Positions 19,796 to 53,100 of a DNA stretch of 64,000 nucleotides are shown here, piece after piece. Each line of letters begins with the position of its first letter. Within the stretch, counting starts at the first letter, position 1. The notes beneath the pieces were generated by a model. That model was not told where the DNA came from. It searched no databases and saw only the letters and a list, made by a program, of their open reading frames with translations. Origin of the DNA: Gallaecimonas kandeliae (GTDB lineage: Bacteria > Pseudomonadota > Gammaproteobacteria > Enterobacterales > Gallaecimonadaceae); NCBI RefSeq assembly GCF_030450055.1, contig NZ_CP118480.1:248001-312000 (forward strand), given 5' to 3'. The translations under genes and the position numbers were made by a program.

Positions 19796-19812
19796 CAGCT
19801 AAACTGGCAACT

Positions 19813-19842
19813 AAAAGAGGCCCTTTGAGGCCTCTTTTCTTT
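19813..19842 (+). terminator. Terminator after the S8 protease
   Basis: Arms AAAAGAGGCC and GGCCTCTTTT around CTTTGA, then CTTTT. Confidence 0.85.
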
Positions 19843-19867
19843 TGCTTTCTGAGAAAGGCTAGATATT

Positions 19868-19904
19868 AAGAAGCGCCGCTATTTGAGCTGGCGCTTCTTT
19901 TTTT
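19868..19904. terminator. Second hairpin between the protease and the convergent precursor gene
   Basis: Arms AAGAAGCGCC and GGCGCTTCTT around a 12-base loop, followed by TTTTT on the plus strand; the minus-strand tail is only TTAATA, so it works mainly on the plus strand and perhaps weakly for the precursor gene that ends at 19955. Confidence 0.7.
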
Positions 19905-19954
19905 GCGAGGTTTACTGCTTTTGTTAGCAACTAACCTGCTTCAAGCAGCAGATA

Positions 19955-20146
19955 TCAGTTGGTGATGCCATCAAGCAAATTAGGAAAAGGGAGAATCATA
20001 CCACCCTCTTCCCCAGTGCTCATGGTGGTGTAAATACCAGTCTCTACGTCATACCCGGTGATTTTAAAGTCGCCTAGTTTTGTCACGCTACCGCCGGTGA
20101 CTTGGTCCTGATCTTGAGTTGCGATTTCCTTGAAAGGGTGTTTCAT
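19955..20146 (-). CDS. Double-glycine leader precursor peptide 1, graspetide-like core
   Basis: A 63-residue precursor. The leader MKHPFKEIATQDQDQVTGG ends in the Gly-Gly processing site of C39-peptidase exporters. The 44-residue core contains YTTMSTGEEGGM, where TTMSTGEE matches the TTxxxxEE pattern of plesiocin-type (group 2) graspetides, in which Thr and Glu side chains are joined as esters by an ATP-grasp enzyme. The paralogue at 20410-20613 has the same leader and a related core. SD ATAAGGAGCG precedes the ATG. A terminator-like hairpin separates it from its paralogue, so it may rely on read-through or a promoter of its own. No cysteine is present. Function as a modified antimicrobial or signal peptide is inferred. 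Confidence 0.75.
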   Translation of the reverse strand: MKHPFKEIATQDQDQVTGGSVTKLGDFKITGYDVETGIYTTMSTGEEGGMILPFPNLLDGITN

Positions 20147-20160
20147 TTCACGCTCCTTAT
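20087..20160 (-). repeat. 74-bp direct repeat, copy 1 (ribosome site plus leader of precursor 1)
   Basis: Covers the ribosome site and leader codons of the first precursor. By eye about 66 of 74 bases match the copy at 20554-20627; the similarity stops just after the Gly-Gly codons, so the leader is conserved and the core has diverged. Confidence 0.8.
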
Positions 20161-20273
20161 GGTAATTTTCTACTTACGATTACTGATTTTGCGCTAGATT
20201 GTTACAGCCGTTTGAATAGGGAATGTTGATTCATCATTCAACATATTCACGCACGTAACACCAACTTAGTCAT

Positions 20274-20318
20274 TTTCAAAAAATACAGTTCTTCCCTCTT
20301 GGAGGGAAGAACTGTATT
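20274..20318 (-). terminator. Strong hairpin terminator between the two graspetide-like precursors
   Basis: Seventeen-base perfect arms (AATACAGTTCTTCCCTC at 20282-20298 and its complement at 20302-20318) with a 3-nt loop. On the minus strand the stem is followed by a TTTTTT run, on the plus strand it is not, so it terminates transcripts that leave precursor 2. Confidence 0.85.
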
Positions 20319-20409
20319 GCGAGTAAAGAAAGATGTTTGCTCTAAAAGGTACTTTCAGAGGAGCATTTCTTTGACTATCGTGACAAAGTGCTTATTGCTA
20401 AACTGGTGT

Positions 20410-20613
20410 TCAGCCAATAGTTGCACCATTTTCGAAGGTGTAAACGGGCATGCCGCCTTCTTCCTCGGTGTTCATAGATGTGACATAGCCGTCTTCATTT
20501 TTAAAGGTGGTGATGGGCTTTACATCGCCGCCACCAATAATCATATCGATCAGGCTACCGCCGGTGACTTGGGTTTGTTCCTGAGCTTCGATTTCCTTGA
20601 ATGGGTGTTTCAT
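20410..20613 (-). CDS. Double-glycine leader precursor peptide 2, graspetide-like core
   Basis: A 67-residue precursor with leader MKHPFKEIEAQEQTQVTGG, almost the same as precursor 1, and a 48-residue core containing VTSMNTEEEGGM. The octet TSMNTEEE aligns with TTMSTGEE of precursor 1 and with the TTxxxxEE graspetide motif, with Ser in place of the second Thr. Ser can also be esterified in some graspetides. The gene lies 36 bases after the stop of the ATP-grasp gene and has the ribosome site ATAAGGAGCG, so it is probably co-transcribed with the exporter and enzyme. No cysteine or known bacteriocin box. The leader predicts cleavage and export by the C39 transporter at 21563-23656. Confidence 0.77.
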   Translation of the reverse strand: MKHPFKEIEAQEQTQVTGGSLIDMIIGGGDVKPITTFKNEDGYVTSMNTEEEGGMPVYTFENGATIG

Positions 20614-20627
20614 TTCACGCTCCTTAT
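20554..20627 (-). repeat. 74-bp direct repeat, copy 2 (ribosome site plus leader of precursor 2)
   Basis: Counterpart of the repeat at 20087-20160, including the shared sequence ATAAGGAGCGTGAAATG. It indicates a tandem gene duplication. Confidence 0.8.
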
Positions 20628-20649
20628 GCGTATTTGTCCTTGCTGCTAT

Positions 20650-21552
20650 TTAGTCCTTTCCAGGGTTTTGCAGCAGTTCGGACAGGGCTAGACTGACCGG
20701 ATGGCCAGTCAATTTTTCAAAGTGATAAAACATGGGACTGGGGTTGGCTTCCAGGTAAAAATAGCGACCCTGTTCGTCACGGCGCCAGTCGATGGCAGTC
20801 CAAGCCAGGCCCAACACCTTCCTGATGGTCTGGGCTTGTTGCTGTATCTCGGTTGGTGGTGTCATGGGGATCAGCCTGGCATTGGTATCTTCCCTGAAAT
20901 CCAGGCTATCACTGGCGATTTCAGCGGAAAATTGCCTGTCACCAATGACGTAAGTCCGGATGTTGGTTCCATCTATACACTGCTGAACAGTGACGGGAGC
21001 TTGTCCGAGAGCCTTGGTCAGGTGCTCTTCTTCCAAATGTTTCTCGGTAACGAACCCCGTATGGTCACCACCAACCACCGGCTTGAATATGCATCGTCCG
21101 GTCTTGGCGACAAAATTCCTGAGTCCATCTTTGTCGTTACCTACCCAAGTTGAGGGAATGGTGACGCCGGCTTGGAACACTGCCTCCAATTGTCTTGGTT
21201 TTTCCTGGTGGAATTCGATGGCATCCCACGAGTTGATGGCCTTTCTGCCAAGCTTTTTTAGGAATGACTTTAACAAGCTTTGGCTGTCACGGGTGGCAAT
21301 CCAGTTAGATGGGTTTTGTTTCACCGGGGCGACCTGAAAATTCCTCCAATAGAGCCCTTTCACGTCATCAGTGACGAAGACTTTTTCACCTAAGCGCAAC
21401 TGCATAGCCTGGTTAGCAGGCTTGTAGCTCAGTTGGATCTCCAGCGGGAACTGCCTCGAATCAAGGATCTTGAAATTGATGTTCTTATTCGATAGTTGCT
21501 TTGCTACCAAGCCAATTTGTAAATCTTCCTTTTCACCCATCAATATAATCAT
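20650..21552 (-). CDS. ATP-grasp peptide ligase, graspetide synthetase-like (MvdC/MvdD type)
   Basis: A 300-residue enzyme of the RimK-like ATP-grasp fold. The N-terminus MIILMGEKEDLQIGLVAKQL resembles the start of microviridin ligases, the ATP-binding middle includes FKPVVGGDHTGFVTEKHLEE and VTVQQCIDGTNIRTYVIGD, and the metal/ATP site is WTAIDWRRDEQGRYFYLEAN followed by PSPMFYHFE. It is expected to activate Glu/Asp carboxylates as acyl phosphates and join them to Thr/Ser hydroxyls of the neighbouring precursors. It begins 10 bases after the exporter stop codon and is followed by precursor 2, in the same operon. Alternatives are a glutathione synthase-like or amino-acid ligase, but the small-precursor context favours a RiPP maturase. 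Confidence 0.8.
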   Translation of the reverse strand: MIILMGEKEDLQIGLVAKQLSNKNINFKILDSRQFPLEIQLSYKPANQAMQLRLGEKVFVTDDVKGLYWRNFQVAPVKQNPSNWIATRDSQSLLKSFLKKLGRKAINSWDAIEFHQEKPRQLEAVFQAGVTIPSTWVGNDKDGLRNFVAKTGRCIFKPVVGGDHTGFVTEKHLEEEHLTKALGQAPVTVQQCIDGTNIRTYVIGDRQFSAEIASDSLDFREDTNARLIPMTPPTEIQQQAQTIRKVLGLAWTAIDWRRDEQGRYFYLEANPSPMFYHFEKLTGHPVSLALSELLQNPGKD

Positions 21553-21562
21553 CTTCTACTTC

Positions 21563-23656
21563 CTACTGGTTGGCCGCTTTTTGAAGACCTTTCACCTGTT
21601 CTGTAATGTCGGTCATCTTTCCTTGAAACAACTGCACTACCCTGTCGGCGCTTTGGATGGTTTCCGGCCGATGGGCAATGATGATACGGGTCATATTTAA
21701 TTGACCTATCGCTGTGTTGACATGATGCTCAAGCTGGACATCCAGGTGGCTGGTTGCTTCGTCAAGGAACAGGACCTTAGGTTGCCTGTAAAGCGCCCTG
21801 GCCAGCAGTACACGTTGCTTCTGGCCGCCTGAAAGCGAACTGCCCATATCGCCAATCAGGGCGTTATACCCCATAGGCATGGCGGCAATGTCCTGGTGGA
21901 TGCCAGCTAGCTGCGCACAATGGATCACCAGTTCCATATTGGTAGGGCTGTCGAAGAAGGCGATGTTCTCGGCAATGGAGCCCGACATTAATTGGTCATC
22001 CTGCATTACTGCCGCCACCTGCTGGCGGTATTGACGCAAGCCCATATGGCGTATATCAACCCCATCCGCCAACACCTTGCCACTCTCCGCAGGGAGTAGC
22101 CCTAACATCAATTTCATCAGGGTGGTCTTGCCCACGCCAGAGGGGCCGACGATGGCTACGCTTTCCCCTGGCCTGAATTCGAAGTTCAAGTGATCGAAGA
22201 GGAGGGGATCTGTGTTGGAGTAGCGGTACCGGATGCCGTCCAGCTTCAGGTGCCCTTTTAGGGATACGGCATGGGCGTCGTGTCCCTCATCTTCCTGCTC
22301 GGTCAAGGCAATATCGGCGAGGCGGCTGAGGTGCAGCTTGGTCATTTTGAGCTGGACCAGCTTGTCGATGAGGGCAGCGGTGCGATCGGTAAACTGCCCT
22401 TTGTAGGACATGAAGGCGAACAACATACCGACGCTGATAGCACCATCCATGACGGCGAGGGCTGCCAGATAGACCACTACGATGTTTTCTATGCCGAACA
22501 CCAGCTGGTTGATGGTCTGGTAGGAGACATTCCACTTGCCCAAGCGGAATTCTTCGCTGATGGCCTCGGCCATGCGGTTTTGCCATAGGTTCAGGCGCTG
22601 GCTCTGTTGCCCGAAGAGCTTGATGCTCTGGATACCGCGGACCGTTTCCATGAAATTGGATTGCTCTTTGGCCTTGGCCACTATGCTGGCTTCGGTGCGC
22701 TCCCGTAACGGCTTGAACAGCGCCAGGCGCAGCAGGCTATAGACCAAGACGGCAAGGGTGACGACGAGGGCCAGCTTGGGGCTGTAGAGCAGCATCATGA
22801 CCATGACGGTAATGGCCATGATGCCGTCGATAAGGCCCTCCACCAGGCTGGTGGTAAGGAGTTCCCGAATCTGGGTGAGGGAGCCGAAGCGGGAAACGAT
22901 ATCGCCCATATGGCGCTTCTCGAAATAACCCAAGGGGAGGTGCAGCAGGTGGCGGAACAGGTTGGTCGCCATCTGCAGGTTCATCATGGACCCCAGATGC
23001 AAGATAACCCAACCGCGCAACGCCTGGGTCAGGGTCCTTACCGCCATCAAGAGGCCGAAGCCCAAGGCCAGTACCACCAACAAGGGCTTGTCCTGGCTGA
23101 CGATCACTTCGTCCACCACCAACTGCATATAGTAGGGGGCGGCCAGCAGGAAGAGTTGCAGCAGCAGCGACAGGGTGAAGATCTTCACCAGCGAACTGCC
23201 AAGCCCCTGGATGCGGCTCCAGAAGGCGGTCAGCCCCAGTTGGACGCGTTCATCTAGCTTCTTGAACTCCTTGGTGGGGGTCAGCTCCAGGGCTACGCCT
23301 GTGAAGGACTTGGACACCTCGGCCATGGCCACACGGCGCTCACCCAGAGCCGGGTCCAGGATCACAATGTGGTTTTTGCCGACCTTCTTCAGCACCACAA
23401 AGTGGTTCATGTTCCAATGCAGTATGCAGGGCAGCCGCAGCTTGGCCATGTCTTCCAGCTCAAGGCGCAAGGCGCGGCCGGCCAGGCCCAATTGATTACC
23501 GAGCTGTATCAGCTGCTGGAGGTTGGCGCCTTTCAGGGAAATGGAATAGCGGTGGCGCAGGGTCTGGAGATCCAGCTTATGACCATGATGGTTGGCGACC
23601 ATGGCCAGGCAAGCCAGGCCACATTCAGCGGCTTCGGATTGTAATATCAACTGCAT
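21563..23656 (-). CDS. Peptidase-containing ABC exporter (C39 peptidase, bacteriocin type)
   Basis: A 697-residue exporter that cuts double-glycine leaders and pumps the mature peptide out. The N-terminal C39 domain (about residues 1-130) has Gln 6, catalytic Cys 12 in AAECGLACLAMVANHHG, His 85 in WNMNHFVVLKKV and Asp 101 in VILDPALG, so the protease is intact. The six-helix membrane domain covers about 165-440, and the ATPase has Walker A GPSGVGKTT, signature LSGGQKQRVLLARAL and Walker B VLFLDEATSHLD. The operon contains four small precursors whose leaders end in GG or GA, and a HlyD adaptor, so this one transporter probably serves all of them. Gap to the ATP-grasp gene is 10 bases. Confidence 0.93.
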   Translation of the reverse strand: MQLILQSEAAECGLACLAMVANHHGHKLDLQTLRHRYSISLKGANLQQLIQLGNQLGLAGRALRLELEDMAKLRLPCILHWNMNHFVVLKKVGKNHIVILDPALGERRVAMAEVSKSFTGVALELTPTKEFKKLDERVQLGLTAFWSRIQGLGSSLVKIFTLSLLLQLFLLAAPYYMQLVVDEVIVSQDKPLLVVLALGFGLLMAVRTLTQALRGWVILHLGSMMNLQMATNLFRHLLHLPLGYFEKRHMGDIVSRFGSLTQIRELLTTSLVEGLIDGIMAITVMVMMLLYSPKLALVVTLAVLVYSLLRLALFKPLRERTEASIVAKAKEQSNFMETVRGIQSIKLFGQQSQRLNLWQNRMAEAISEEFRLGKWNVSYQTINQLVFGIENIVVVYLAALAVMDGAISVGMLFAFMSYKGQFTDRTAALIDKLVQLKMTKLHLSRLADIALTEQEDEGHDAHAVSLKGHLKLDGIRYRYSNTDPLLFDHLNFEFRPGESVAIVGPSGVGKTTLMKLMLGLLPAESGKVLADGVDIRHMGLRQYRQQVAAVMQDDQLMSGSIAENIAFFDSPTNMELVIHCAQLAGIHQDIAAMPMGYNALIGDMGSSLSGGQKQRVLLARALYRQPKVLFLDEATSHLDVQLEHHVNTAIGQLNMTRIIIAHRPETIQSADRVVQLFQGKMTDITEQVKGLQKAANQ

Positions 23657-23720
23657 ACCACATAAATCACGTTATTAATTATTAAGACAAGACTATATTT
23701 TGAAATTGATTATTTGAGAT

Positions 23721-23945
23721 TTACTCCTTACTCTTATGTTTTCTAGAAAATATAAGGATCAATAAAATAGATGCTGTCAGTATCGTGCTAGACATGGCTC
23801 CAAGATATTCATGGAAAATTGATGTGGCGATGATACTAATCATTAGTGAAACTATAAAATTTGTTTGTTTTTCTTTAAAACGTCTATCTGTAATAGCTAA
23901 AATCAAAATTAAAAAGAGCATGATGATATTAATTATGGGGAGCAT
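23721..23945 (-). CDS. Small three-helix membrane protein, possible immunity protein
   Basis: A 74-residue hydrophobic protein from ATG 23945 (SD AGAGGT). About three membrane segments can be seen (IINIIMLFLILILAI, NFIVSLMISIIATSIF, STILTASILLILIF) and a basic tail SRKHKSKE. A longer in-frame start at 23993 would lie inside the hairpin at 23962-23997 and is less likely. I do not recognise the family. Its position right after the two bacteriocin-like genes and before the exporter, its size and membrane nature fit a class II bacteriocin immunity protein. The DNA is strikingly AT-rich. Function is inference only. Confidence 0.55.
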   Translation of the reverse strand: MLPIINIIMLFLILILAITDRRFKEKQTNFIVSLMISIIATSIFHEYLGAMSSTILTASILLILIFSRKHKSKE

Positions 23946-23961
23946 AATTATGACCTCTTGT

Positions 23962-23997
23962 AGTAGTGCATTACTTGGTGAAAAGTAATGCACTACT
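23962..23997 (-). other. Intra-operon 15-bp stem hairpin between bacteriocin 2 and the small membrane gene
   Basis: Perfect arms AGTAGTGCATTACTT (23962-23976) and AAGTAATGCACTACT (23983-23997) around a 6-base loop. On the minus strand no T-run follows, so it is not a standard terminator; it may stabilise the upstream precursor mRNA or lower expression of downstream genes. Confidence 0.7.
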
Positions 23998-24006
23998 GGT
24001 TATGTA

Positions 24007-24201
24007 TTATTTGCTACAAACCATGTCACCAGCCCAGGCGCCGATTTGTTCGCCAATCCCGACCCCGGTGGCGGCAGCAAATCCTCCGGAAAAATATCCT
24101 CCAATCGCCCCTCCGATCAATGCTCCAGCAAGGCGTGTTGTACCCTCACAAAAGCTGCCACCTTGAATATCTTGAAGTTTTTCAAGCTTAATTTCTTGCA
24201 T
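24007..24201 (-). CDS. Class II bacteriocin-like precursor with double-glycine leader (peptide B)
   Basis: A 64-residue precursor from ATG 24201 (SD GAGGA). The leader MQEIKLEKLQDIQGG is a textbook double-glycine leader. The mature 49-residue peptide is rich in Gly/Ala with small-xxx-small motifs (LAGALIGGAIGGYFSGGFAA) and has a Cys near its start (SFCEG) and one in the C-terminal CSK. These features fit a helix-forming pore peptide; glycine zippers are typical of two-peptide class IIb bacteriocins. The preceding gene encodes a similar peptide also ending in CSK. The usual longer start in this frame at 24282 overlaps that gene and is rejected. Target range is unknown. Confidence 0.82.
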   Translation of the reverse strand: MQEIKLEKLQDIQGGSFCEGTTRLAGALIGGAIGGYFSGGFAAATGVGIGEQIGAWAGDMVCSK

Positions 24202-24211
24202 CACATAGTCC

Positions 24212-24403
24212 TCACTTACTGCAAACGTAGCTTGCCAAAATGTCACCTGCAGCGAATCCGACAGTGGCACCGGCGCCCGCACCAGCCGGCCCCAGAATGG
24301 CTCCTAATGCTCCCCCCATAAATGAATAGCTCATCTGAAATGCTGTTGTACAGGCGCTAGCACCATTTACTTCTTGTGCTTGTTCAAAAGACAGTTCTTG
24401 CAT
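24212..24403 (-). CDS. Class II bacteriocin-like precursor with GA-type leader (peptide A)
   Basis: A 63-residue precursor. The leader MQELSFEQAQEVNGA ends in Gly-Ala, an accepted variant of the double-glycine site. The mature 48-residue peptide has Cys near the start (SACTTAF), a glycine-zipper core (MGGALGAILGPAGAGAGATV) and the tail SYVCSK. The strong ribosome site AAGGAG precedes the ATG. The stop codon is 10 bases before the ATG of peptide B, whose ribosome site overlaps the end of this gene, so equal synthesis is likely; this fits a two-peptide bacteriocin. Both have two Cys at the ends, suggesting a disulfide joining the termini. Confidence 0.82.
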   Translation of the reverse strand: MQELSFEQAQEVNGASACTTAFQMSYSFMGGALGAILGPAGAGAGATVGFAAGDILASYVCSK

Positions 24404-24468
24404 TTTATACTCCTTGGTTAAATTAGCCTTCCTTGAAGGCTTCCGTGCAGCAGGTAAATACCAGCTTT

Positions 24469-25719
24469 TTACAATTGCCCTTTCAGGCTTAGTATTGGCT
24501 CGAGCAGCCAGGCCATCAGGCTGCGCTTCTCGAGTACGATATCGGCGCTTAGGAGCATCCCTGCCTTGAGCGGCATCTGGGCTCCATAAGCATTGACCTC
24601 TTGCTTGTCCAGCTTGACATCCACCCTGTACATGGGTTCTCGGAAGGCCACGGGTGAACTGACTTCCCCAGGCAGCATCACCGCCTTGCCGGCCTTTGCT
24701 ACCCGGCCTGAATAAAGGCCAAAGCGCTGGTAGGGAAAGGCGTCGAAGCGGATGCGGGTGCTTTGCCCTGCCTTGATAAAACCATAGGCCCTGGTCGGTA
24801 CCAGCAGTACCGCATAGAGTTTGCTGTGGTCCGGCAGTATGGTCATCAGGTGGTCCCTGGTGGTGACCGTATTGCCGGCATCGGTAACCAGGTTGGTGAC
24901 GCGGCCTGATATGGGCGCCGTGATAAGCACAGTTCCCCTGGCTTGCAGCTCGGTTTTCTGCTGCTCCAAACGCGACCTTTCGCCGTCCAGCTGGGCTATC
25001 TGTTGGGCCTTTTCCATCGGCAGCCGTTTCAGCTGGCCTTCGGCTTGCGAGTGCTGAGATAGGTTCAGGCTGTAAGTGGCTTGGAGTTCGGCCAGCTGCT
25101 GTTCCTGGCCAAGCACCAGCTCTTGCTGTTTGTCCATTTCCAGTTTGGAAATGTGCCCCTTGGCATTGAGCCTTTTGTACGTTTCCAGCCGCTTCTTGTT
25201 CAATACAAGGCGCTCATTCGCCAACTTGAGCTGGGTATCGGTATCGGACAGCTGTTTACCCAATGCAGAAAGGCGGTCGGTCAGCTCTTGTTTCTGCTGG
25301 GCGAATTGTTCTTTCAACTCTTTTTTTCTTGCGTCCAGTAAATCGAATTGTGCCTTAAGCGCCTGGAGCAGAGAGTGGGAAACACTTTTCCCCTCGCTGA
25401 GGTAGTCGGGTACTGTAATCAAAGCCAGCTTGTCGCCCGCTTTTACCAGTTGCCCCTCTTCCACATAAACATTGGAAATAATGCCTTCGCGTGGCGAGAC
25501 GATTTTGGCCAGGCCTGAATCTGGCTTAAGGTAGCCCTGTACTGTTTCTTTTCGAGTGAAAGAGGAGAGGCAAAGGAAAGTGATTAAGGACGCGGCCAGT
25601 ATCAACAGCAGTAATATCAGCAGAGAAGCGCTGACGGGCTGTGCAACCAATACCTCACCGTCGAGACGATTAGATTGGTTTTTGACGGCTTCTTGTCTGA
25701 ACAATCCTTGCTCTGACAT
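24469..25719 (-). CDS. HlyD-family secretion adaptor of the bacteriocin/graspetide exporter
   Basis: A 416-residue membrane-fusion protein that connects the C39 ABC exporter to an outer-membrane channel such as TolC. One helix lies near the N-terminus (SASLLILLLLILAASLITFL, about 30-49), followed by a lipoyl half (IVSPREGIISNVYVEEGQLV), a long coiled coil (about 110-240), the second lipoyl half (VLITAPISGRVTNLV) and a C-terminal beta-barrel. It belongs to the CvaA/LcnD-like bacteriocin group. It is the first gene of the minus-strand operon, with a good promoter 50-80 bases upstream. ATG 25719 follows a weak ribosome site (ACAGGGATGTTGT). Confidence 0.88.
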   Translation of the reverse strand: MSEQGLFRQEAVKNQSNRLDGEVLVAQPVSASLLILLLLILAASLITFLCLSSFTRKETVQGYLKPDSGLAKIVSPREGIISNVYVEEGQLVKAGDKLALITVPDYLSEGKSVSHSLLQALKAQFDLLDARKKELKEQFAQQKQELTDRLSALGKQLSDTDTQLKLANERLVLNKKRLETYKRLNAKGHISKLEMDKQQELVLGQEQQLAELQATYSLNLSQHSQAEGQLKRLPMEKAQQIAQLDGERSRLEQQKTELQARGTVLITAPISGRVTNLVTDAGNTVTTRDHLMTILPDHSKLYAVLLVPTRAYGFIKAGQSTRIRFDAFPYQRFGLYSGRVAKAGKAVMLPGEVSSPVAFREPMYRVDVKLDKQEVNAYGAQMPLKAGMLLSADIVLEKRSLMAWLLEPILSLKGQL

Positions 25720-25769
25720 ACAACATCCCTGTCACTAAAAATTAAACACGAAAGCGGTGTGTTTTTGTT

Positions 25770-25798
25770 TTTTTAACGTCAAGAAGGCGTAGTGTCAA
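25770..25798 (-). promoter_or_regulatory. Candidate sigma-70 promoter of the bacteriocin/graspetide operon
   Basis: On the minus strand TTGACA (plus 25793-25798), a 17-base spacer, then TAAAAA (plus 25770-25775). The -35 is a perfect consensus; the -10 matches four of six. The start site would be about 40 bases before the HlyD ATG. Confidence 0.6.
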
Positions 25799-25905
25799 CA
25801 ATGAACCTTTCAAATGCCTATTATTTGATCAAGTGTGCGGTGGTAAGGGGGGATGAAACTCGCGCTGAGGCGGCATGGCGGCTCAGTTCCCTGTCTTTGA
25901 GGGGC

Positions 25906-44164: not shown

Positions 44165-47100
44165 ATGAGTCGAGCCTGGCTGTGGTTGGGATTACTGGTT
44201 GCCTTTGCGGGCAGCGCCAAGGAACTGGTGCTGGTGGATGCCGAACTTGCGCCACAGCTTAAAGCCGAACCTGGCGCCGAGGTCAGGGCCATCCGCAGCC
44301 TGGGCCAACTGCCAGGGGCCCTGGCCGGCGGCCAGTGGGACAGGGTCAGCCTGGTCAGCCACGGCCGGCCCGGCGCCCTGCTGCTTGGCGGCCAGCGCCT
44401 CGACCAGGCTTTTCTTGCCCAACATCCCGGCTTCCTGGACGCCTGGCGAAATCAACTGACGGCGGGCGCCCAGCTTGAGCTCTGGGGCTGTGATCTGGCA
44501 AAAGGCCAGGGCCATAACCTGGTGGACAGCCTTTCGGCGGCCCTGGGCCGGCCGGTGCTGGCCTCCATCGACGCCACTGGCCCTGCCAGCCTCGGCGGCA
44601 ACCTGCGCCTGGAATACGGCCAGGGCCGGGTGCCGGACAGCGCGCCTCTTGCCTTGTTGCACCAGCTGTTGCTGAGCAGTTCGGACAGTCAGGACTTTGA
44701 AAGCTTCGCTGCTTCATCTTCGTCGCCAAACTATCCGGGCAATAGCCACGACTTTGGCGCCTTTACCATCTCTTCCAATGCCGCGAGCACCCCTGGCCTT
44801 TGGGTCTTGGCTAGCAGTAATACCAATAGTGGTACCAAGGAGCTTTACGTTACTGGCTATAACGGTGATGTAACAACGGTTACCGTTAAAAGCACTGACG
44901 GCAGCGAGTTCAAGCTCAACTCCCTTTATATCGATGTCGGTCTCGGCGGTTTGGCCCAAAAGCTAACCATCACCGCTTACCGCAATGGCGCCTCGCAAGG
45001 CAGCACCAACGTCGATTACTCCAGCACCCAGTTTGGTACTAGCAGTTTCAGTGGGATCAGTGCCTTCGATAACATCGACGAAATCAGGATCACCTCAAAC
45101 GACGGTCAACCTGTCGATATCAGCATCGACAATATCAACGTGTCGGCCCCCGTGCTGCCCTATAACAGCGACGGCAACCTCACCGCAGGCGGCGGCAGCG
45201 AACCCGGCAGCATCGCCACCAACGCAGGCGCTACAGCGGCCCTGGACTTCACCCTGAGCGACGGTGGCACCAGTGACGGCGTGGCCATGACGGTGTCCCA
45301 GGTGCAGGTTCATGTCTCAGGTACCAGCACAGCCACCGAGCGTGGCAACGCCGTCTGGACCCTGACCGGGCCCGACATCAGCGGCTCTGTCACCGGCAGC
45401 TACAGCGGCGGCGTCGTCACCTTCTCCGGCCTCTCCATCAGCGTTGCCGACGGTGGCAGCGAGACCTATACGGTCAACGCCGACCTGGGCCACAGCGGCA
45501 TGACCGAGGGTCACACCTTTATTCTCAGCCTGGACGGCGATACCGACCTGACGATAGGCGGCTCCGGTACCCAGATGGGCACCACCACGGCGGTGACCAA
45601 CGGGTCGGGATTTGCCACCAGCGTCACTGCCACCAAGCTGGCCTTCACCACCCAGCCGGCCGGCTCCGTCTCCGGCAGCGCCCTCATCACCCAGCCCGTG
45701 GTCACGGCCCAAGATGCCTTTGGCAATACCGATACCGGCTTCACCAGCAACGTCAGCCTGAGCGAGGCCAGCGCCGGTGCCTTGAGCGGCACCACCACAG
45801 TCGCGGCCAGCAGCGGCGTGGTCACCTTCAGCAACCTGGTTTACACGGCATCGGCCGATCAGGAAGCCTTCACCCTGACCGCCGCCGCCACCGGCCTGAC
45901 CGACGGCACCGCCAGCCCCGTCACCTCCGACGTGGTGGCCACCAAGCTGATCTTCACCACCCAGCCGGCCCCCACCAGCATCAGCAGCGGGTCGGCCACC
46001 AGCTTCAGCACTGTGCCCGTGGTCAAGGCGGTGGACGCCAACAACACCCTCGATACCGGCTACAGCACCGACCTGGTGTTGTCGGTGACCAACACCTCCG
46101 GCGGCCTGCCGGCCGGTACCGTCAACAGCCTGAGCGGCACCGGGGACACCGACGGCAATGGCATCACCGTCACCCTGACCCCAAGCAGCGGCAGCGCCAC
46201 CTTCAGTGGCCTGCAACTGCAATACACCAATAGCGCCAGCACCGACAGTATTGCCCTGCACGCGGCATCGGGAGGCCTGAGCACCGCCAACAGCACCACC
46301 ATCATTTCCGCCGCCGTGCCTGTCGTTACCGACGGCAATATCTCCATCAGCGGCGCCACCGGCACAGGGGGCGCCTACATCATCGGTGATACTGTCACCG
46401 CCACCTGGAACAACACCGCCGGCGGTGACAACAACAGCGGCATTACCGGCGTCACCGTCGATTTCAGCCAGTTCGGCGGCGGCTCAAGCGTGACCGCCAG
46501 CAACAGCGCCGGTACCTGGACTGCGACCTACACCATCAACGCCGGCAGTATCGACGCCACCAACCGCAACGTCAGCGTCTCTGCCACCAACGCCAACGGC
46601 ACCAAAACCACGGCCGATACCACCAACGCCACCGTCGACAGCATCGCCCCTACCGTCACCGACGCTAATGTCTCGATCTCCGGCGCCAGCGGCACCGGCG
46701 GCGCCTATGTCATTGGCGATACTGTCACTGCCACTTGGAACAATACCGGCAGCGGTGACAACAACAGTGACACCATCGCCGGCGTCACCGTGAACTTCTC
46801 CGCCTTCGGCGGCGGCAGCAGCGTTGCCGCCAGCAACAGCGCCGGCACCTGGACCGCCACTTACACCATCACCGCCGGGGCCATAGATGCCATCAATCGC
46901 AATGTGTCCGTGACGGCCACCGACAACGCCGGTAACACCCAGACCACGGTGGACAGCAGCAACGCCACTGTCGACAACGTCGCGCCCACAGTCACCGACG
47001 CCCATATTTCTATCTCCGGCGCCAGCGGCACCGGCGGCGCCTACAAGATAGGCGATACCGTCACCGCCACCTGGGACAATACCGGCACAGGGGACAACAA

Positions 47101-50100
47101 CAGCGACACCATCGCTGGCGTCACTGTGAACTTCTCCGCCTTCGGCGGCGGCTCCAGCGTAGCCGCCAGCAACAGCGGCGGCACCTGGACGGCGACCTAC
47201 ACCCTTACCGCCGGCAGCGTCGACGCCACTAACCGCAATATCTCGGTGAGCGCCACCGACAACGCCGGCAACACCAAGACCACCACGGACACCACCAACG
47301 CCACTGTGGATAGCCAGGCGCCCACCGTCACCGACGCCAACATCACTATCTCCGGCGCCAGCGGCACCGGTGGAGCCTTTAAGGTCGGCGACACCGTCAC
47401 CGCCACCTGGAACAACACAGGGGCAGGTGACAACAACAGCGACACCATCACCGGCGTCACCGTCGACTTCAGCCAGTTCGGCGGCGGCTCCAGCGTTGCC
47501 GCCAGCAACAGCAGCGGTACCTGGACCGCTACCTATACCCTGGTGGCCGGCAGCATAGAGGGCAGCAACCTCAATATCTCGGTGACCGCCACCGACGATG
47601 CCGGCAACGTCACTGCGACCAGCGATACTAGCAATGCCACAGTGGACAACCAGGCGCCCACCGTCACCGACGCCAACATGGCTATCTCCGGCGCGAGCGG
47701 CACCGGCGGCGCCTATGTCATTGGCGATACTGTCACTGCCACTTGGAACAACACCGTCGGCGGCGACAACAACGGCGACATCGCCGGCGTCACCGTGAAC
47801 TTCTCCGCCTTCGGCGGCGGCAGCAGCGTTGCCGCCAGCAACAGCGCCGGCACCTGGACCGCCACTTACACCATCACCGCCGGTGCCATAGACGCCATCA
47901 ATCGCAATGTGTCCGTGACGGCCACCGACAACGCCGGCAACACCCAGACCACGGTGGACAGCAGCAACGCCACTGTCGACAACGTCGCGCCCACAGTCAC
48001 CGACGCCCATATTTCTATCTCCGGCGCCAGCGGCACCGGCGGCGCCTACAAGATAGGCGATACCGTCACCGCCACCTGGGACAATACCGGCACAGGTGAC
48101 AACAACAGCGACACCATCGCTGGCGTCACTGTGAACTTCTCCGCCTTCGGCGGCGGCTCCAGCGTAGCCGCCAGCAACAGCGGCGGCACCTGGACGGCGA
48201 CCTACACCCTTACCGCCGGCAGCGTCGACGCCACTAACCGCAATATCTCGGTGAGCGCCACCGACAACGCCGGCAACACCCAGACCACCAGTGACACCAG
48301 CAACGCCACTGTGGATAGCCAGGCGCCCACCGTCACCGACGCCAACATCACTATCTCCGGCGCCAGCGGCACCGGCGGGGCCTTTAAGGTCGGCGACACC
48401 GTCACCGCCACCTGGAACAACACAGGGGCAGGTGACAACAACGGCGACATCGCCGGCGTCACCGTGAACTTCTCCGCCTTCGGCGGCGGCAGCGCTGTTA
48501 CCGCCAGCAACAGCGCCGGCACCTGGACCGCTACCTATACCCTGGTGGCCGGCAGCATAGAGGGCAGCAACCTCAATATCTCGGTGACCGCCACCGACGA
48601 TGCCGGCAACGCCAGCACTACCAGCGACAGCAGCAATGCTACTGTCGATACCGTAGCGCCTGCTGCACCTTCCACCCCCGTGCTCGACGCCGGTTCCGAT
48701 GGCGGCACCCTGGGTGATGGCATCACCAACGACAACACCCCCACCCTGACCGGTACCGGCGAAGCCAGTGCCCAGGTGCTGATCTTCGACGGCGCCAGCC
48801 AGGTCGGCAGCGCCAGCGTCGACGGCAGCGGCAACTGGAGCCTGGCTACCAGTACCCTGGCGGACGGCAGCCACAGCCTGACCGCCAAGCAGCAGGATGG
48901 CGCCGGTAACCTGTCCAGCGCCTCCGGTGCCCTGGCCCTGACCATAGACGCCACTGCGCCGGCCGGTTACGGCCTGGTGGTGGATCAAAGCCCGGTCAAC
49001 GCCGCCAACCAGGGGGCGACCTCCGTCACCCTGTCCGGCGCCGAAGTGGGTACCAGCTACAGCCTGACCGTCTCCAGCAGCGGCGGCGGCAGCCCTGTGG
49101 TGGCCACCGGCAGCATCAGTGCCGCCAACCAGCAGCTCACCGGCATAGATGTCAGCGGTCTTCCCGACGGCACCCTGAGCTACAGCCTGGTGCTGACCGA
49201 CACCGCCGGCAATGCCGGCACTGCCGCCAGCGCCAACGTCACCAAGGACACCACTGCTCCCAGCGGCTATGGCGCCAGCTTTGATGCCAGTTATGTCAAC
49301 ATCGCCAACCAGGCCAGCCAGTCGGTGACTCTGAGCGGCGAAGTGGGAGCCAGCTACCAGCTCACCATCAGCGATGGCAGCGGCACTGTCAGCCGCTCCG
49401 GCACTCTGGCCAGCGCTAGCCAGAGCATCAGCAGCCTGGATCTCAGCGGTCTGGCGGACGGCAGCCTCAGCCTGTCCCTGGTGCTGACAGACAGTGCCGG
49501 CAACGCCGGCACCGCTGCCACAGCCAACATCACCAAGGACACTGTGGCGCCGACCCTGCAAAGCACCAGCCCCAGCAGTGGTGCCACCAAGGTGGCCTTG
49601 AACACCGGCATCAGCCTGCAGTTCAGTGAGGCCATCCAGGCCGGCACCAGCGGCAGCAACCACCTGACCCTGACCGCCTCTGACAGCACTGCTGTGTTCG
49701 ACAGCGCCGCCGACGGCAGCGCTGTGGCCCTCGCCGGCGACACCGCCAGCCTGACGTTGTCCCAGGACCTGGTGCCGACCCTGGTGCACCAGCTGGCCGT
49801 GGGCAGCGACGCCTTTACCGACCTGGCGGGCAACCCCTACGCCGGCGGCAATGTGCTTAGCTTCACCGCCCAGAGCGCCGCGCCCAGCGCCAATGCCGAT
49901 AGCTACAGCCTCACAGAGGACCAGCCGGCCCAGCTGTCGGTGCTGGACAACGACACCCTGGTCAGGGGCAGCTTCAACAAGGCCAGCCTGACCATAGTGA
50001 CCCAGCCCCAGCACGGCAGCCTGTCCCTCAACACCGGCACCGGCGTGCTGACCTACAACCCGGCCGCCGACTATAACGGCGCCGACAGCTTCAGCTACCA

Positions 50101-53100
50101 GGTGCAGGACAGCTACGGCGATCTTTCCAGCCTTGGCACCGTCACCCTGACCCTGGCGGCCGTCAATGATGCCCCCAGGGCCCAGGACGACACCGCCAGC
50201 CTGCAGGCCGGCGCCACCCTGGACCTGGACGTGCTGGCCAACGATGTGGATGTAGACAGCGGCGACAGCCTGAATGTGAACAGCCTGGCCCTGGTGACCA
50301 GCCCCGCCCACGGCACCGCTACCGTGCAGGCCGGCAAGATCCACTACCAGGCCGCCAGCGACTATGTCGGCACCGTCACCCTGAGCTACCAGGTGGCGGA
50401 CACCAGCAACGGCGCCCTCTCCAACGAGGCTAGCGTCACCCTGAGCGTCCAGAACGCCGATGCTCCCGTCGCTAACGCCGACAGTGGCACCCTGGATGAA
50501 GACTCCAGCCTGAGCCTGGATGTGCTGGCCAACGACAGCGGTGCAGGCCTGGATGCCAGCACCTTGCAGGTGGTGGTGCCACCGGCCCACGGCCAGGTGA
50601 CCCTGGCGGCCGGCAAGCTGAACTATGTGCCGGTCGCCGACTATAACGGTGCCGACAGCTTCAGCTACCTGGTGCAGGACGGCACCGGCCAGGGCTCCAA
50701 CGCCGCCGCCGTCAGCCTGACCATCAACCCGGTCAATGACGCACCCGTGGCTAACGCCGACACTGCAGTGCTCACCGGCAGTCAGCCCATCGACATCAAC
50801 GTCAAGGGCAACGATGGTGACGTGGACAACGCCAACAGCACCCTCACCGTCGAGATCCTGACCCAGCCGGCCCAGGGTAGCGCCGCCGTCAACGGCGATC
50901 TGGTGCGCTATACCCCCAGCGGCAGCCTGAGCGGTGACGTCAGCTTCACCTACCGCCTCAAGGATCCGTCCGGCGCCGTCTCGGCGGCGGCTACCGTCAC
51001 CATTACCAACATGGTGCCCAACGAGGCGCCCCTGGCGGTGGACGACAGTGCCCAGACCGACGAGAACCAGCCATTGGCCATCGACGTGCTGGCCAATGAC
51101 AGCGACCATGACGGCAGCTTGGACGTGAACAGCCTGGCGGTGACCAGCCAGCCTGCCCACGGCAGCGTGGTGCTGGAATCCGGGAAGCTGAAATACAGCC
51201 CGGCCACCGACTTCCACGGCAGCGACAGCTTCGCCTACCAGGTGGCGGACAACCAAGGCGCCCTGTCCAACGAGGCCCAGGTCTCGGTGCGGGTGCTGCA
51301 GACCGACCAGGCGCCCGTCATCAGCGGCAGCCCGGCGAGCTCGGTGCAGCAGGACGCCAGCTACAGCTTCGTGCCCAGCGCCTCGGATGCCGACAACGAT
51401 CCCTTAAGCTTCAGCATCCAGAACAAGCCGGCCTGGGCCAGTTTCGATACCAGCACAGGCACCTTGAGCGGCCAGCCCGGCAATGCCGACGTGGGCCTCT
51501 TTGAGAACATCGTCATCAGCGTCAGCGACGGTATCCTCAGCAGCAGCCTGCCTGCCTTCAGCATCGAAGTGGTCAACGTCAACGATGCCCCAGTGGCGGT
51601 GGACGACAGCTATGGCCTGGACGAAGGTGGCCTGCTGGTGGAGAGTGCCGCCCAGGGCGTGCTGGCCAACGACAGCGACCCCGACCAGGACCCCCTGGCG
51701 GTCCAGTTGCTGGTGGGCCCGCTGCATGCCCAGAGCTTCAGCCTCAATGCCGATGGCAGCTTCAGCTACCAGCATGATGGCAGCGAAACCCAGGCCGACA
51801 GCTTCAGCTACAGCGTCAGCGACGGCCAGGGCGGCAGCGCCACCGCTGTCGTCAGCCTGGCCATCACGCCGGTGGACGATGCTCCCGTCTTCACCAGCAC
51901 ACCGCCCTCCAGCCTGGTGGCCGGCAGTAGCCTGAACTACAAGGTGCAGACGGTCGATCCCGACAGCGCCGTCAGCCTGACCTTGGTCCAGGCCCCGGAC
52001 TGGCTGACCTTGAACGATGACATGCTGAGCGGCACAGCGCCCTTGGACGCCAGCGGCAGCGTCACAGTCGAGCTGCTGGCCAGCGACGGCCTGAAGCAGG
52101 CGACCCAGCGCTTCGACCTGCAACTGGCCGCGCCCCAGCAGAGCCTGGTGGCCCTTACCGCCAACTGGCAGGGCCTGCCGGCCAAGGTCGGCAAACCCCT
52201 GAGCCTGGTGCTGAGTGCCCAGCATCAGGGCGGCCCCGCCCTGAGTGGCGCCACCCTGGAACTGAGCCTGCAAGGCGCCACCATGGAGACCATCCCCGGC
52301 TGTAGCCAGCAGAACGGGGTGCAGCAGTGCAGCGTCAACCTGGCGGCCGGTGCCCAGCAGCAGTTCAGCCTGCCGGTCAGCACCCAGAACCAGGGTGACC
52401 AGACGGTGGCGGCCAGGTTGCTGGACAGCCAGGGCCAGGTGCTGGCCGAGCTCACCACAGACGTCACCGTCACCCCGGACAGCCTGTCCCAGGGCGACAG
52501 GGCGGCGGTGATCGCCAAGGCCACGGCCCTGACCTTGCTGCACGACGGTGGCCAACCCCTGTTGGTGGTGGGCACCAGCAGCGGTGAAGGGGTGACCCTC
52601 TACAACTTCACCACCACCAGCCTCAGCGCCCTGGCGACCCTGGACAACCTGGGCGACACCCGTGCCCTGGCGGCCCTGGACTGGAACCAGGACGGCCTGG
52701 AAGACTTGGTAGTGGTGAACGACGAGGGTGACGCCTCCGGTCTCTACCTCAACCAGGGCAACCTCCACTTCAGCGCCCTGCAGAGCCTGCCTTATGGCCG
52801 CAAGGTCAGGGTGGCCGACCTCAACCACGACGGCTACAAGGATCTGCTGATCGGCGGCCAGGGCCTCTACTTCTACCCCGGCAGCAGTGGCGGCAGCGCC
52901 GCTACCTTGCAGGTGGTGCAGGCGCCCTTCGTGACCAGCGAGTTCGAGCTCTGGCCCGACGGCCGCATCCTGGTGACCGACGGCCAGCAGCTGCGCCTCA
53001 TCGATCTGAAGACGGTGGCCGACCAGAGCATCGCCTCCGTCGGTGCCAAGGTCGGCATCATGGCCACAGCCGCCAGCACCGACAGCAGCCTGGCCAGCAT

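What the first reader, a model, noticed from the sequence alone, without database searches (positions are those of the whole stretch)
19955..25798. Mixed class II bacteriocin and graspetide-like biosynthetic operon sharing one exporter
One minus-strand cluster runs HlyD adaptor, two GG/GA-leader bacteriocin-like peptides, a small membrane protein, a C39 peptidase ABC exporter, an ATP-grasp ligase and two paralogous GG-leader precursors with T(T/S)xxxxEE cores. ATP-grasp plus TTxxxxEE is the signature of graspetides (plesiocin-like), while the other two peptides look like unmodified two-peptide bacteriocins. A locus with both kinds and a single C39 exporter that would have to accept two different leader families (MQE(I/L)... 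and MKHPFKEI...) is not something I know as described. It lies in an AT-richer insertion between pckA and hslO.
Basis: partly seen in the sequence, partly recalled or inferred. Interest (0 to 1): 0.9.

Follow-up and report, generated by a model that had tools for sequence, protein, structure and literature searches.

The report
Graspetide and bacteriocin-like genes share exporter
A bacterium carries one gene cluster that seems to make two quite different kinds of small secreted peptide, ring-closed ones and plain toxin-like ones, and to send both out through one pump; related bacteria have the same arrangement, some with many peptides, so it recurs and is no freak.

Summary
Minus-strand genes run HlyD, two GG/GA-leader glycine-zipper peptides, small membrane protein, C39 peptidase-ABC exporter, ATP-grasp ligase, two paralogous precursors (19955-25719). 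The ligase is of the graspetide kind: its best solved relative is 7drm (recalled as PsnB, plesiocin; profile E 3.3e-46), against 8e-15 for the best RimK-type enzyme. The cluster is absent from this site in all 4 sister genomes held.

The mixed arrangement recurs. Of 17 loci read with a window-type ligase, 15 also show at least two other GG-leader peptides by a pattern scan; of 32 with the sister ligase type, none does. Exporters seen in mixed loci lie among those of GG-peptide loci without the ligase, in three lineages; all 28 exporters of sister-type loci form a separate clade. In one close relative the same exporter scaffold holds a class III lanthipeptide synthetase instead. Likeliest reading: a general GG-peptide exporter to which a graspetide cassette was docked.

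Against: both graspetide leaders carry Gln at -7, where a studied C39 peptidase needs a hydrophobic residue; the bacteriocin identity is weak; nothing was tested at the bench.

The parts
24469..25719 (-). HlyD-type periplasmic adaptor (416 aa)
   Evidence: Pfam HlyD_D23 E 5.5e-18, HlyD_3 E 1e-16; groups with adaptors of loci without the ligase and of mixed loci, 25 of 52 rows, SH-aLRT 100
24212..24403 (-). peptide 1, GA leader, 48-aa Gly/Ala-rich core with Cys at core positions 3 and 46
   Evidence: paralogue of peptide 2 (32% identity, E 4.4e-5)
24007..24201 (-). peptide 2, GG leader, 49-aa Gly/Ala-rich core with Cys at core positions 3 and 47
   Evidence: Pfam Bacteriocin_IIc E 2.4e-4, below cut-off
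23961..23998 (-). hairpin (15 pairs, loop 6) between peptide 2 and the membrane protein gene, no T tract on this strand; role unknown
   Evidence: -21 kcal/mol, z -7.85
23721..23945 (-). small membrane protein (74 aa, two to three hydrophobic stretches), candidate immunity protein
   Evidence: hydropathy and position; no family match above a cut-off
21563..23656 (-). C39 peptidase-ABC exporter (697 aa)
   Evidence: Pfam Peptidase_C39 E 2.5e-36, ABC_membrane E 2.6e-43, ABC_tran E 2.3e-32; 77-78% identical to exporters of mixed loci L084, L088, L173
20650..21552 (-). ATP-grasp graspetide synthetase (300 aa)
   Evidence: NCBIfam TIGR04187 (type subfamily) E 1.1e-37, 129.9 bits, below its 350-bit cut-off; rimK_fam E 6.3e-18; PDB profile 7drm E 3.3e-46
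20410..20613 (-). graspetide precursor A (67 aa), leader MKHPFKEIEAQEQTQVTGG, core with TSMNTEEE
20278..20318 (-). hairpin running into a T run between precursors A and B; terminator-like by eye
   Evidence: 14 pairs in the stretch folded, z -6.54; T run read; NOT listed by the terminator scan
19955..20146 (-). graspetide precursor B (63 aa), leader MKHPFKEIATQDQDQVTGG, core with TTMSTGEE
   Evidence: its ribosome-binding region and leader form an 86-nt repeat with those of A, 86% identical

Best explanation
This is an acquired secretion operon that makes two kinds of peptide. The ATP-grasp enzyme binds the HPF box in the leaders of precursors A and B and closes two nested side-chain esters in each core (Thr1-Glu8 outside, Thr/Ser2-Glu7 inside), giving a plesiocin-like bicyclic hairpin. 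Peptides 1 and 2 are not modified by it; they are a glycine-zipper pair, probably a class IIb-like bacteriocin with a disulphide between the two ends, and the small membrane protein is their immunity factor. The one C39-ABC exporter with HlyD (and a TolC-type channel elsewhere, assumed) cuts all four leaders after GG/GA and exports all four. Shown by sequence: gene content and order, insertion, enzyme family, recurrence of the arrangement, grouping of the exporter. Inferred: ring pattern, lack of modification of peptides 1 and 2, immunity role, shared export, any killing or protease-inhibiting activity.
For: Ligase: TIGR04187 E 1.1e-37; the six best PDB sequences, 7drm (3.3e-46) to 9bou (6.3e-29), are by name or recall graspetide enzymes, RimK only 8e-15. 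Precursors: a T/S-x4-E core behind a GG-type leader sits beside the ligase in most relatives. Ring pattern: position 1 is T/S exactly when position 8 is E in 35 of 36 distinct cores, though this state changes only twice on the ligase tree; L180 holds both core types. Shared exporter: 10 bp separate exporter and ligase genes; exporter, ligase and precursor follow each other on one strand also in L084, L088 and L173, whose exporters are 77-78% identical to the window's; 15 of 17 window-type loci are mixed against 0 of 32 sister-type loci; the 13 exporter rows from mixed loci lie outside the clade of the 28 sister-type exporters. All four leaders share I/L at -12, V/I at -4, G at -2, G/A at -1.
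Against: The leaders of A and B carry Gln at -7; LahT150, a studied C39 peptidase, needs a hydrophobic residue there (PMC6363468, PMC10885120, passages). But 10 of 19 leaders typed from sister-type loci lack it too, with no other substrate in sight. The genome has a second C39 exporter. Peptides 1 and 2 have no trustworthy homologue in the other 294 order genomes searched (peptide 2 as query). On the ligase tree the window's place with L084, L088 and L173 is weak (82/61). The promoter scan is no better than chance (8 against 5.4), so one transcript is assumed.
Confidence: 0.6

Rival explanations
1. Two neighbouring systems: the exporter serves peptides 1 and 2 only, while A and B are modified by the ligase but cut and exported by another route.
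For: Gln at -7 in both graspetide leaders against Leu/Ala in peptides 2 and 1; a second C39 exporter exists in the genome.
Against: Exporter and ligase genes are 10 bp apart; exporter, ligase and precursor follow each other in three other genomes; the second exporter is only 40% identical and sits beside a radical SAM protein.
Confidence: 0.15
2. Shared export holds, but peptides 1 and 2 are secreted signals, decoys or surface peptides and not bacteriocins (compatible with the rest of the best explanation).
For: Weak family match; arrays of very short, repeated GG peptides in relatives do not look like classical bacteriocins.
Against: Glycine-zipper cores with 5 and 7 GxxxG motifs and an end-to-end Cys pair, paired paralogues, adjacent small membrane protein.
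Confidence: 0.2
3. The ligase also modifies peptides 1 and 2, so all four are graspetides.
For: Co-location only.
Against: Peptides 1 and 2 have no HPF box in the leader and no T/S-x4-E-x-G core; the core of peptide 1 has no Glu at all.
Confidence: 0.04
4. The ATP-grasp protein is a non-peptide ligase or dead.
For: Score below the TIGR04187 cut-off (129.9 against 350 bits).
Against: Closest solved relatives are graspetide enzymes; its C-terminal motif LEANPSPMF is kept as in relatives; precursor genes adjoin it. Catalytic residues were not checked one by one.
Confidence: 0.03

Closest known systems
Plesiocin-type (group 2) graspetides; group number and TTxxxxEE motif recalled
   Same: Ligase nearest to 7drm; core fits T(T/S)xxxxEE; nested two-ester hairpin expected; group 2 has high co-occurrence with NHLM-type transporters (PMC13097080, section 7 read)
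   Different: One ring unit per precursor and not four repeats; HPF leader; exporter shared with other GG peptides
Class IIb / Bacteriocin_IIc double-glycine bacteriocins
   Same: GG/GA leader, glycine-zipper paired cores, adjacent small membrane protein, HlyD and C39-ABC
   Different: Family match below cut-off; Cys pair at the two ends; graspetide genes in the same operon
Sister-type graspetide loci of the order with their own exporter clade (32 read here, such as L019, L076)
   Same: C39-ABC in 28 of 32 stretches, ligase, T-x4-E precursor in most
   Different: Usually one precursor, often a small HTH-like protein (by eye, not tested), no second peptide kind; separate exporter clade; HPF box further from the cut
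Arrays served by one tolerant C39 exporter, such as LahT with up to nine precursors (PMC10885120, passages)
   Same: One exporter, many cores
   Different: There the precursors belong to one modification class

Membership tests
Graspetide | ATP-grasp ligase of the peptide macrocyclase kind | tested here: met
   score is below the TIGR04187 cut-off
Graspetide | Adjacent precursor with leader and Ser/Thr(Lys) plus Glu/Asp core | tested here: met
Graspetide | Side-chain ester or amide rings in the product | not testable with these tools
   needs mass spectrometry
Plesiocin group 2 | TTxxxxEE core (recalled) | tested here: met
   B exactly, A with TS in place of TT
Plesiocin group 2 | Ligase inside the group 2 cluster of the published network | not tested
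   the survey and review looked up were not held; only 7drm as nearest solved relative
Plesiocin group 2 | Several repeats of the core, as in plesiocin itself | tested here: not met
   one unit in each of A and B
Class II (IIb) bacteriocin | Curated family match | tested here: not met
   Bacteriocin_IIc 21.5 bits against 27.1 for peptide 2; none for peptide 1
Class II (IIb) bacteriocin | GG-type leader, paired genes, C39 exporter | tested here: met
Class II (IIb) bacteriocin | Killing activity and immunity | not testable with these tools
   bench work
C39 peptidase-containing exporter | C39, membrane and ATPase domains in one chain | tested here: met

The most novel reading that the evidence does not exclude
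The exporter is a shared secretion hub with exchangeable maturation cassettes (graspetide in the window and 14 other mixed loci, class III lanthipeptide in L139), and the cell secretes a cocktail in which the ring-closed graspetide, a protease inhibitor like plesiocin, shields the unmodified toxin peptides from proteases of neighbours.
Probability: 0.15. Interest if true: 0.8.

Novelty: new variant of a known kind. Interest (0 to 1): 0.6.

Why it matters
If the exporter takes both kinds, C39 leader rules are looser than LahT150 suggests, and genome miners who search by one peptide class miss half of such loci. It also makes a question testable: why are ester-ringed peptides, some of which (plesiocin) inhibit proteases, encoded together with unmodified ones? 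The family offers a ready experiment on ring number, because cores with one and with two expected rings occur beside related ligases.

Tried and rejected
Structure of the ligase: AlphaFold2 with a two-row alignment gave mean pLDDT 58.3; discarded, no fold search run. Homologues of peptide 2 in 295 order genomes: besides the window's two peptides only seven weak partial matches (E 0.002-0.01), all inside longer open frames (178-691 aa); treated as noise. Peptide 1 was not searched for by itself. Plasmid collection: no match to peptide 2; 8 records with distant ligase matches, all under 36% identity. Genome-contig scan: one distant relative (L004, 35%). Fisher p-values on the core pairing are not used, since the state changes only twice on the tree; the looser re-extraction (87 of 88) contains strings that are not true cores. 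Promoter scan: nothing above chance; the hairpin between A and B was not listed by the terminator scan. Idea that the S8 peptidase belongs to the system: rejected, it stands at the site in 3 of 4 sisters without the cluster. Direct repeats at the insertion ends: nothing convincing.

Rows dropped and choices: one search is a hand-typed list of 41 cores, of which L092 did not fit the pattern; L024, L025 and L103 gave no core and are not in it. The change count leaves out L004, L024, L025, L092 and L103. The exporter tree leaves out L140 (frame in pieces) and loci without a long exporter hit in the stretch (L022, L025, L099, L105, L177, L179, L182); some rows are cut by the end of the stretch (L178, L181). 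The adaptor tree was made before the last 11 loci were fetched. Of 56 places I read the 37 with E at most 4.9e-86; the 19 weaker ones were not chosen. The leader table uses 19 leaders chosen by hand from the 32 sister-type loci (unclear cut sites and near-copies left out; L092 was entered from an inner start, its longer form also has HPF, with Pro at -24) and 22 GG peptides from five mixed loci, whose -12, -4 and partly -7/-8 residues were required by the scan that found them. The scans use slightly different patterns. In one search the scan mislabels 14 short repeated GG peptides of L181 and L182 as precursors. L175 and L179 reach the mark of two GG peptides only just.
Full report
OBSERVATION. 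Pfam and NCBIfam confirm HlyD, a C39-ABC exporter and an ATP-grasp protein; the four small peptides and the small membrane protein have no match above a curated cut-off. In 19800-25800 a GG-type leader followed by a T/S-x4-E-x-G core occurs twice, against 0.01 per shuffle (200 shuffles, maximum 1); the GG pattern alone occurs 4 times against 0.7 (maximum 4). The cluster is an insertion: in all 4 other genomes held of the genus the stretch around hslR-hslO and pckA has none of the cluster genes (one has a 199-residue ABC-ATPase match elsewhere in the stretch); in 3 of the 4 one to three S8 peptidase genes stand between. None of the 4 has a comparable ligase; their best matches are E 5.8e-8 or weaker.

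THE LIGASE. The best NCBIfam match is TIGR04187, ATP-grasp ribosomal peptide maturase (E 1.1e-37, below its cut-off), ahead of MvdC (4.8e-26), MvdD (5.5e-22) and the RimK family (6.3e-18); TIGR04187 is also the model quoted for the characterised synthetase MirB (PMC13097080, passage). Against the PDB a profile of nine relatives finds 7drm first (3.3e-46), then AMdnB, two ATP-grasp ligases, CdnC and 9bou (down to 6.3e-29), with RimK-type enzymes from 8e-15; the single sequence also puts 7drm first (3.7e-27; RimK entries 1.2e-4). That 7drm is PsnB, the plesiocin macrocyclase, is my recollection; the PDB line says only ATP-grasp domain-containing protein.

THE PRECURSORS. A and B are duplicates: the ribosome-binding region and leader form an 86-nt repeat, 86% identical, while the proteins are 53% identical. 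A hairpin running into a T run lies between them, though the terminator scan did not list it. In relatives the same family of core stands beside the ligase: T at position 2 and E at position 7, then x-G; L024, L025 and L103 gave no such core. In 35 of 36 distinct cores position 1 is T/S exactly when position 8 is E (12 with both, 23 with neither; one exception in L097; L092 did not fit the pattern). That is what nested rings 1-8 and 2-7 would give, with the inner ring always present and the outer one optional. The state changes only twice on the ligase tree, so it is suggestive and not statistically strong; locus L180 has a TT/EE core and a VT/ED core in one locus, one more change.

PEPTIDES 1 AND 2. 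They are paralogues (32% identity, E 4.4e-5). Their cores are 48 and 49 residues, 20 and 21 of them Gly or Ala, with Cys at position 3 and again third from the end, and 5 and 7 GxxxG motifs. Peptide 2 matches Bacteriocin_IIc at E 2.4e-4, below the cut-off. A class IIb-like pair with an end-to-end disulphide and the adjacent membrane protein as immunity is inference.

RECURRENCE. The ligase is rare in the samples drawn: 8 of 295 order genomes at E at most 1e-20, the window's own included, and 2 of 369 class genomes at 1e-30, again with its own. One family of the order is rich in it: 52 of 295 genomes at 1e-30. I read 37 of the 56 places listed there, plus 11 new places from three genera searched with window-type ligases (1 of 22, 2 of 31 and 12 of 108 genomes). 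Of the 17 window-type loci (window, L084, L088, L097, L101, L103, L173-L183), 15 have at least two further GG-leader peptides by the scan; L103 and its near-copy L176 have none. Of the 32 sister-type loci none has two, and seven have a single hit, mostly doubtful. Arrays can be large: 13 hits in L097, 21 in L183. Five genera in two families hold mixed loci, but 10 of the 15 come from one genus, so they are not independent. On the ligase tree a supported split (99/97) separates the 32 sister-type ligases from the 17 and the outgroup, and the mixed label needs two changes; the window's own grouping with L084, L088 and L173 is weak there (82/61).

THE EXPORTER. In the exporter tree (62 rows, quick method) the 28 exporters found in sister-type loci form one clade (SH-aLRT 99). 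The 13 exporter rows from mixed loci (12 of the 15 loci; L183 gives two; three stretches hold none long enough) all lie outside it, among 17 exporters of loci without the ligase, in three lineages: window with L084, L088, L173 and L139; L097, L101, L174, L180, L181 and one of L183 with L148; L175, L178 and the other of L183 with L142, L146, L154, L103 and L176. The adaptor tree, made with the first 52 rows, agrees: adaptors of ligase-free and mixed loci, with L139 and L103, group at 100. Of the 18 ligase-free loci fetched as exporter relatives (L140-L157), 12 show a GG-leader candidate by the scan; some candidates, as in L149 and L152, look like lanthipeptide precursors, so the neutral name is GG-peptide exporter. 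L139 is telling: a locus of the same genus as L088 and L173, with exporter 71% and adaptor 50% identical to the window's, holds a class III lanthipeptide synthetase (RamC_N, kinase, LANC_like). L139, L084, L088 and L173 share the scaffold LuxR-type gene, exporter, cassette, HlyD, glmU. So the maturation cassette has been swapped while the exporter stayed.

CAN ONE PUMP TAKE BOTH? LahT150 recognises hydrophobic residues at -4, -7 and -12 and a small pair at -2/-1 (PMC6363468 and PMC10885120, passages). All four window leaders have I/L at -12, V/I at -4, G at -2, G/A at -1; at -7 peptides 2 and 1 have Leu and Ala, but A and B have Gln. A hydrophobic -7 is missing in 16 of the 30 graspetide leaders tabulated, 10 of them from sister-type loci where no other substrate is in sight, so these exporters probably tolerate it. 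The HPF box lies upstream: its Pro is at -15/-16 in 11 of 11 window-type leaders tabulated, and at -19 to -21 in the 10 of 19 sister-type leaders that show it there (L092, entered short, has it at -24). A compact two-part leader, HPF for the ligase and -12 to -1 for the peptidase, would explain how the two kinds share one pump.

KNOWN AND NEW. C39-ABC and HlyD are among the commonest neighbours of graspetide ligases (PMC8939145; abstract, parts 1-3 of 5 of section 4, and section 7 read), so those parts are ordinary; group 2 loci often have such a transporter (PMC13097080, section 7 read). Plesiocin inhibits serine proteases (PMC13097080, passage). I found no description of graspetide genes together with unmodified GG-leader peptides under one exporter in ten searches of the held library (seen as listings, with passages of eight papers and sections of two of them). 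A genome-mining survey, a review and an early ATP-grasp paper were not held, so it may be in print. PMC13097080 does mention graspetide loci with lanthipeptide dehydratases at low frequency. Verdict: known parts in a recurrent combination for which I saw no description; new variant of a known kind.

Noticed in passing
L138 8115-13152 (window genome, contig 1, about 3,775,100-3,780,150): The genome's second C39 exporter lies near a radical SAM protein; it may be another peptide-modifying locus.
   Followed up: partly
L139 3356-10147: Same exporter scaffold as the window's nearest relatives, but with a class III lanthipeptide synthetase and a GG-leader peptide holding two WSTMSxGC repeats.
   Followed up: partly
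L088 6378-7594: A second ligase with a microviridin-like YPSDSD precursor (Inhibitor_I10 E 0.005, below cut-off) stands in the same locus as the TTxxxxEE-type graspetide genes.
   Followed up: no
L181 15208-16658, L183 13873-15521: Arrays of near-identical 35-37 residue GG-leader peptides (11 copies of one kind in L181).
   Followed up: no
window 23961-23998: Very stable hairpin between peptide 2 and the membrane protein gene without a T run; could set the ratio of upstream to downstream transcript.
   Followed up: partly
L033 3819-15417: Sister genome with three tandem S8 peptidase matches between pckA and hslO where the window has one.
   Followed up: no
window 44165-53962: One open frame of 3265 aa; not examined beyond a 149-residue, 30% match to the S8 peptidase.
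   Followed up: no
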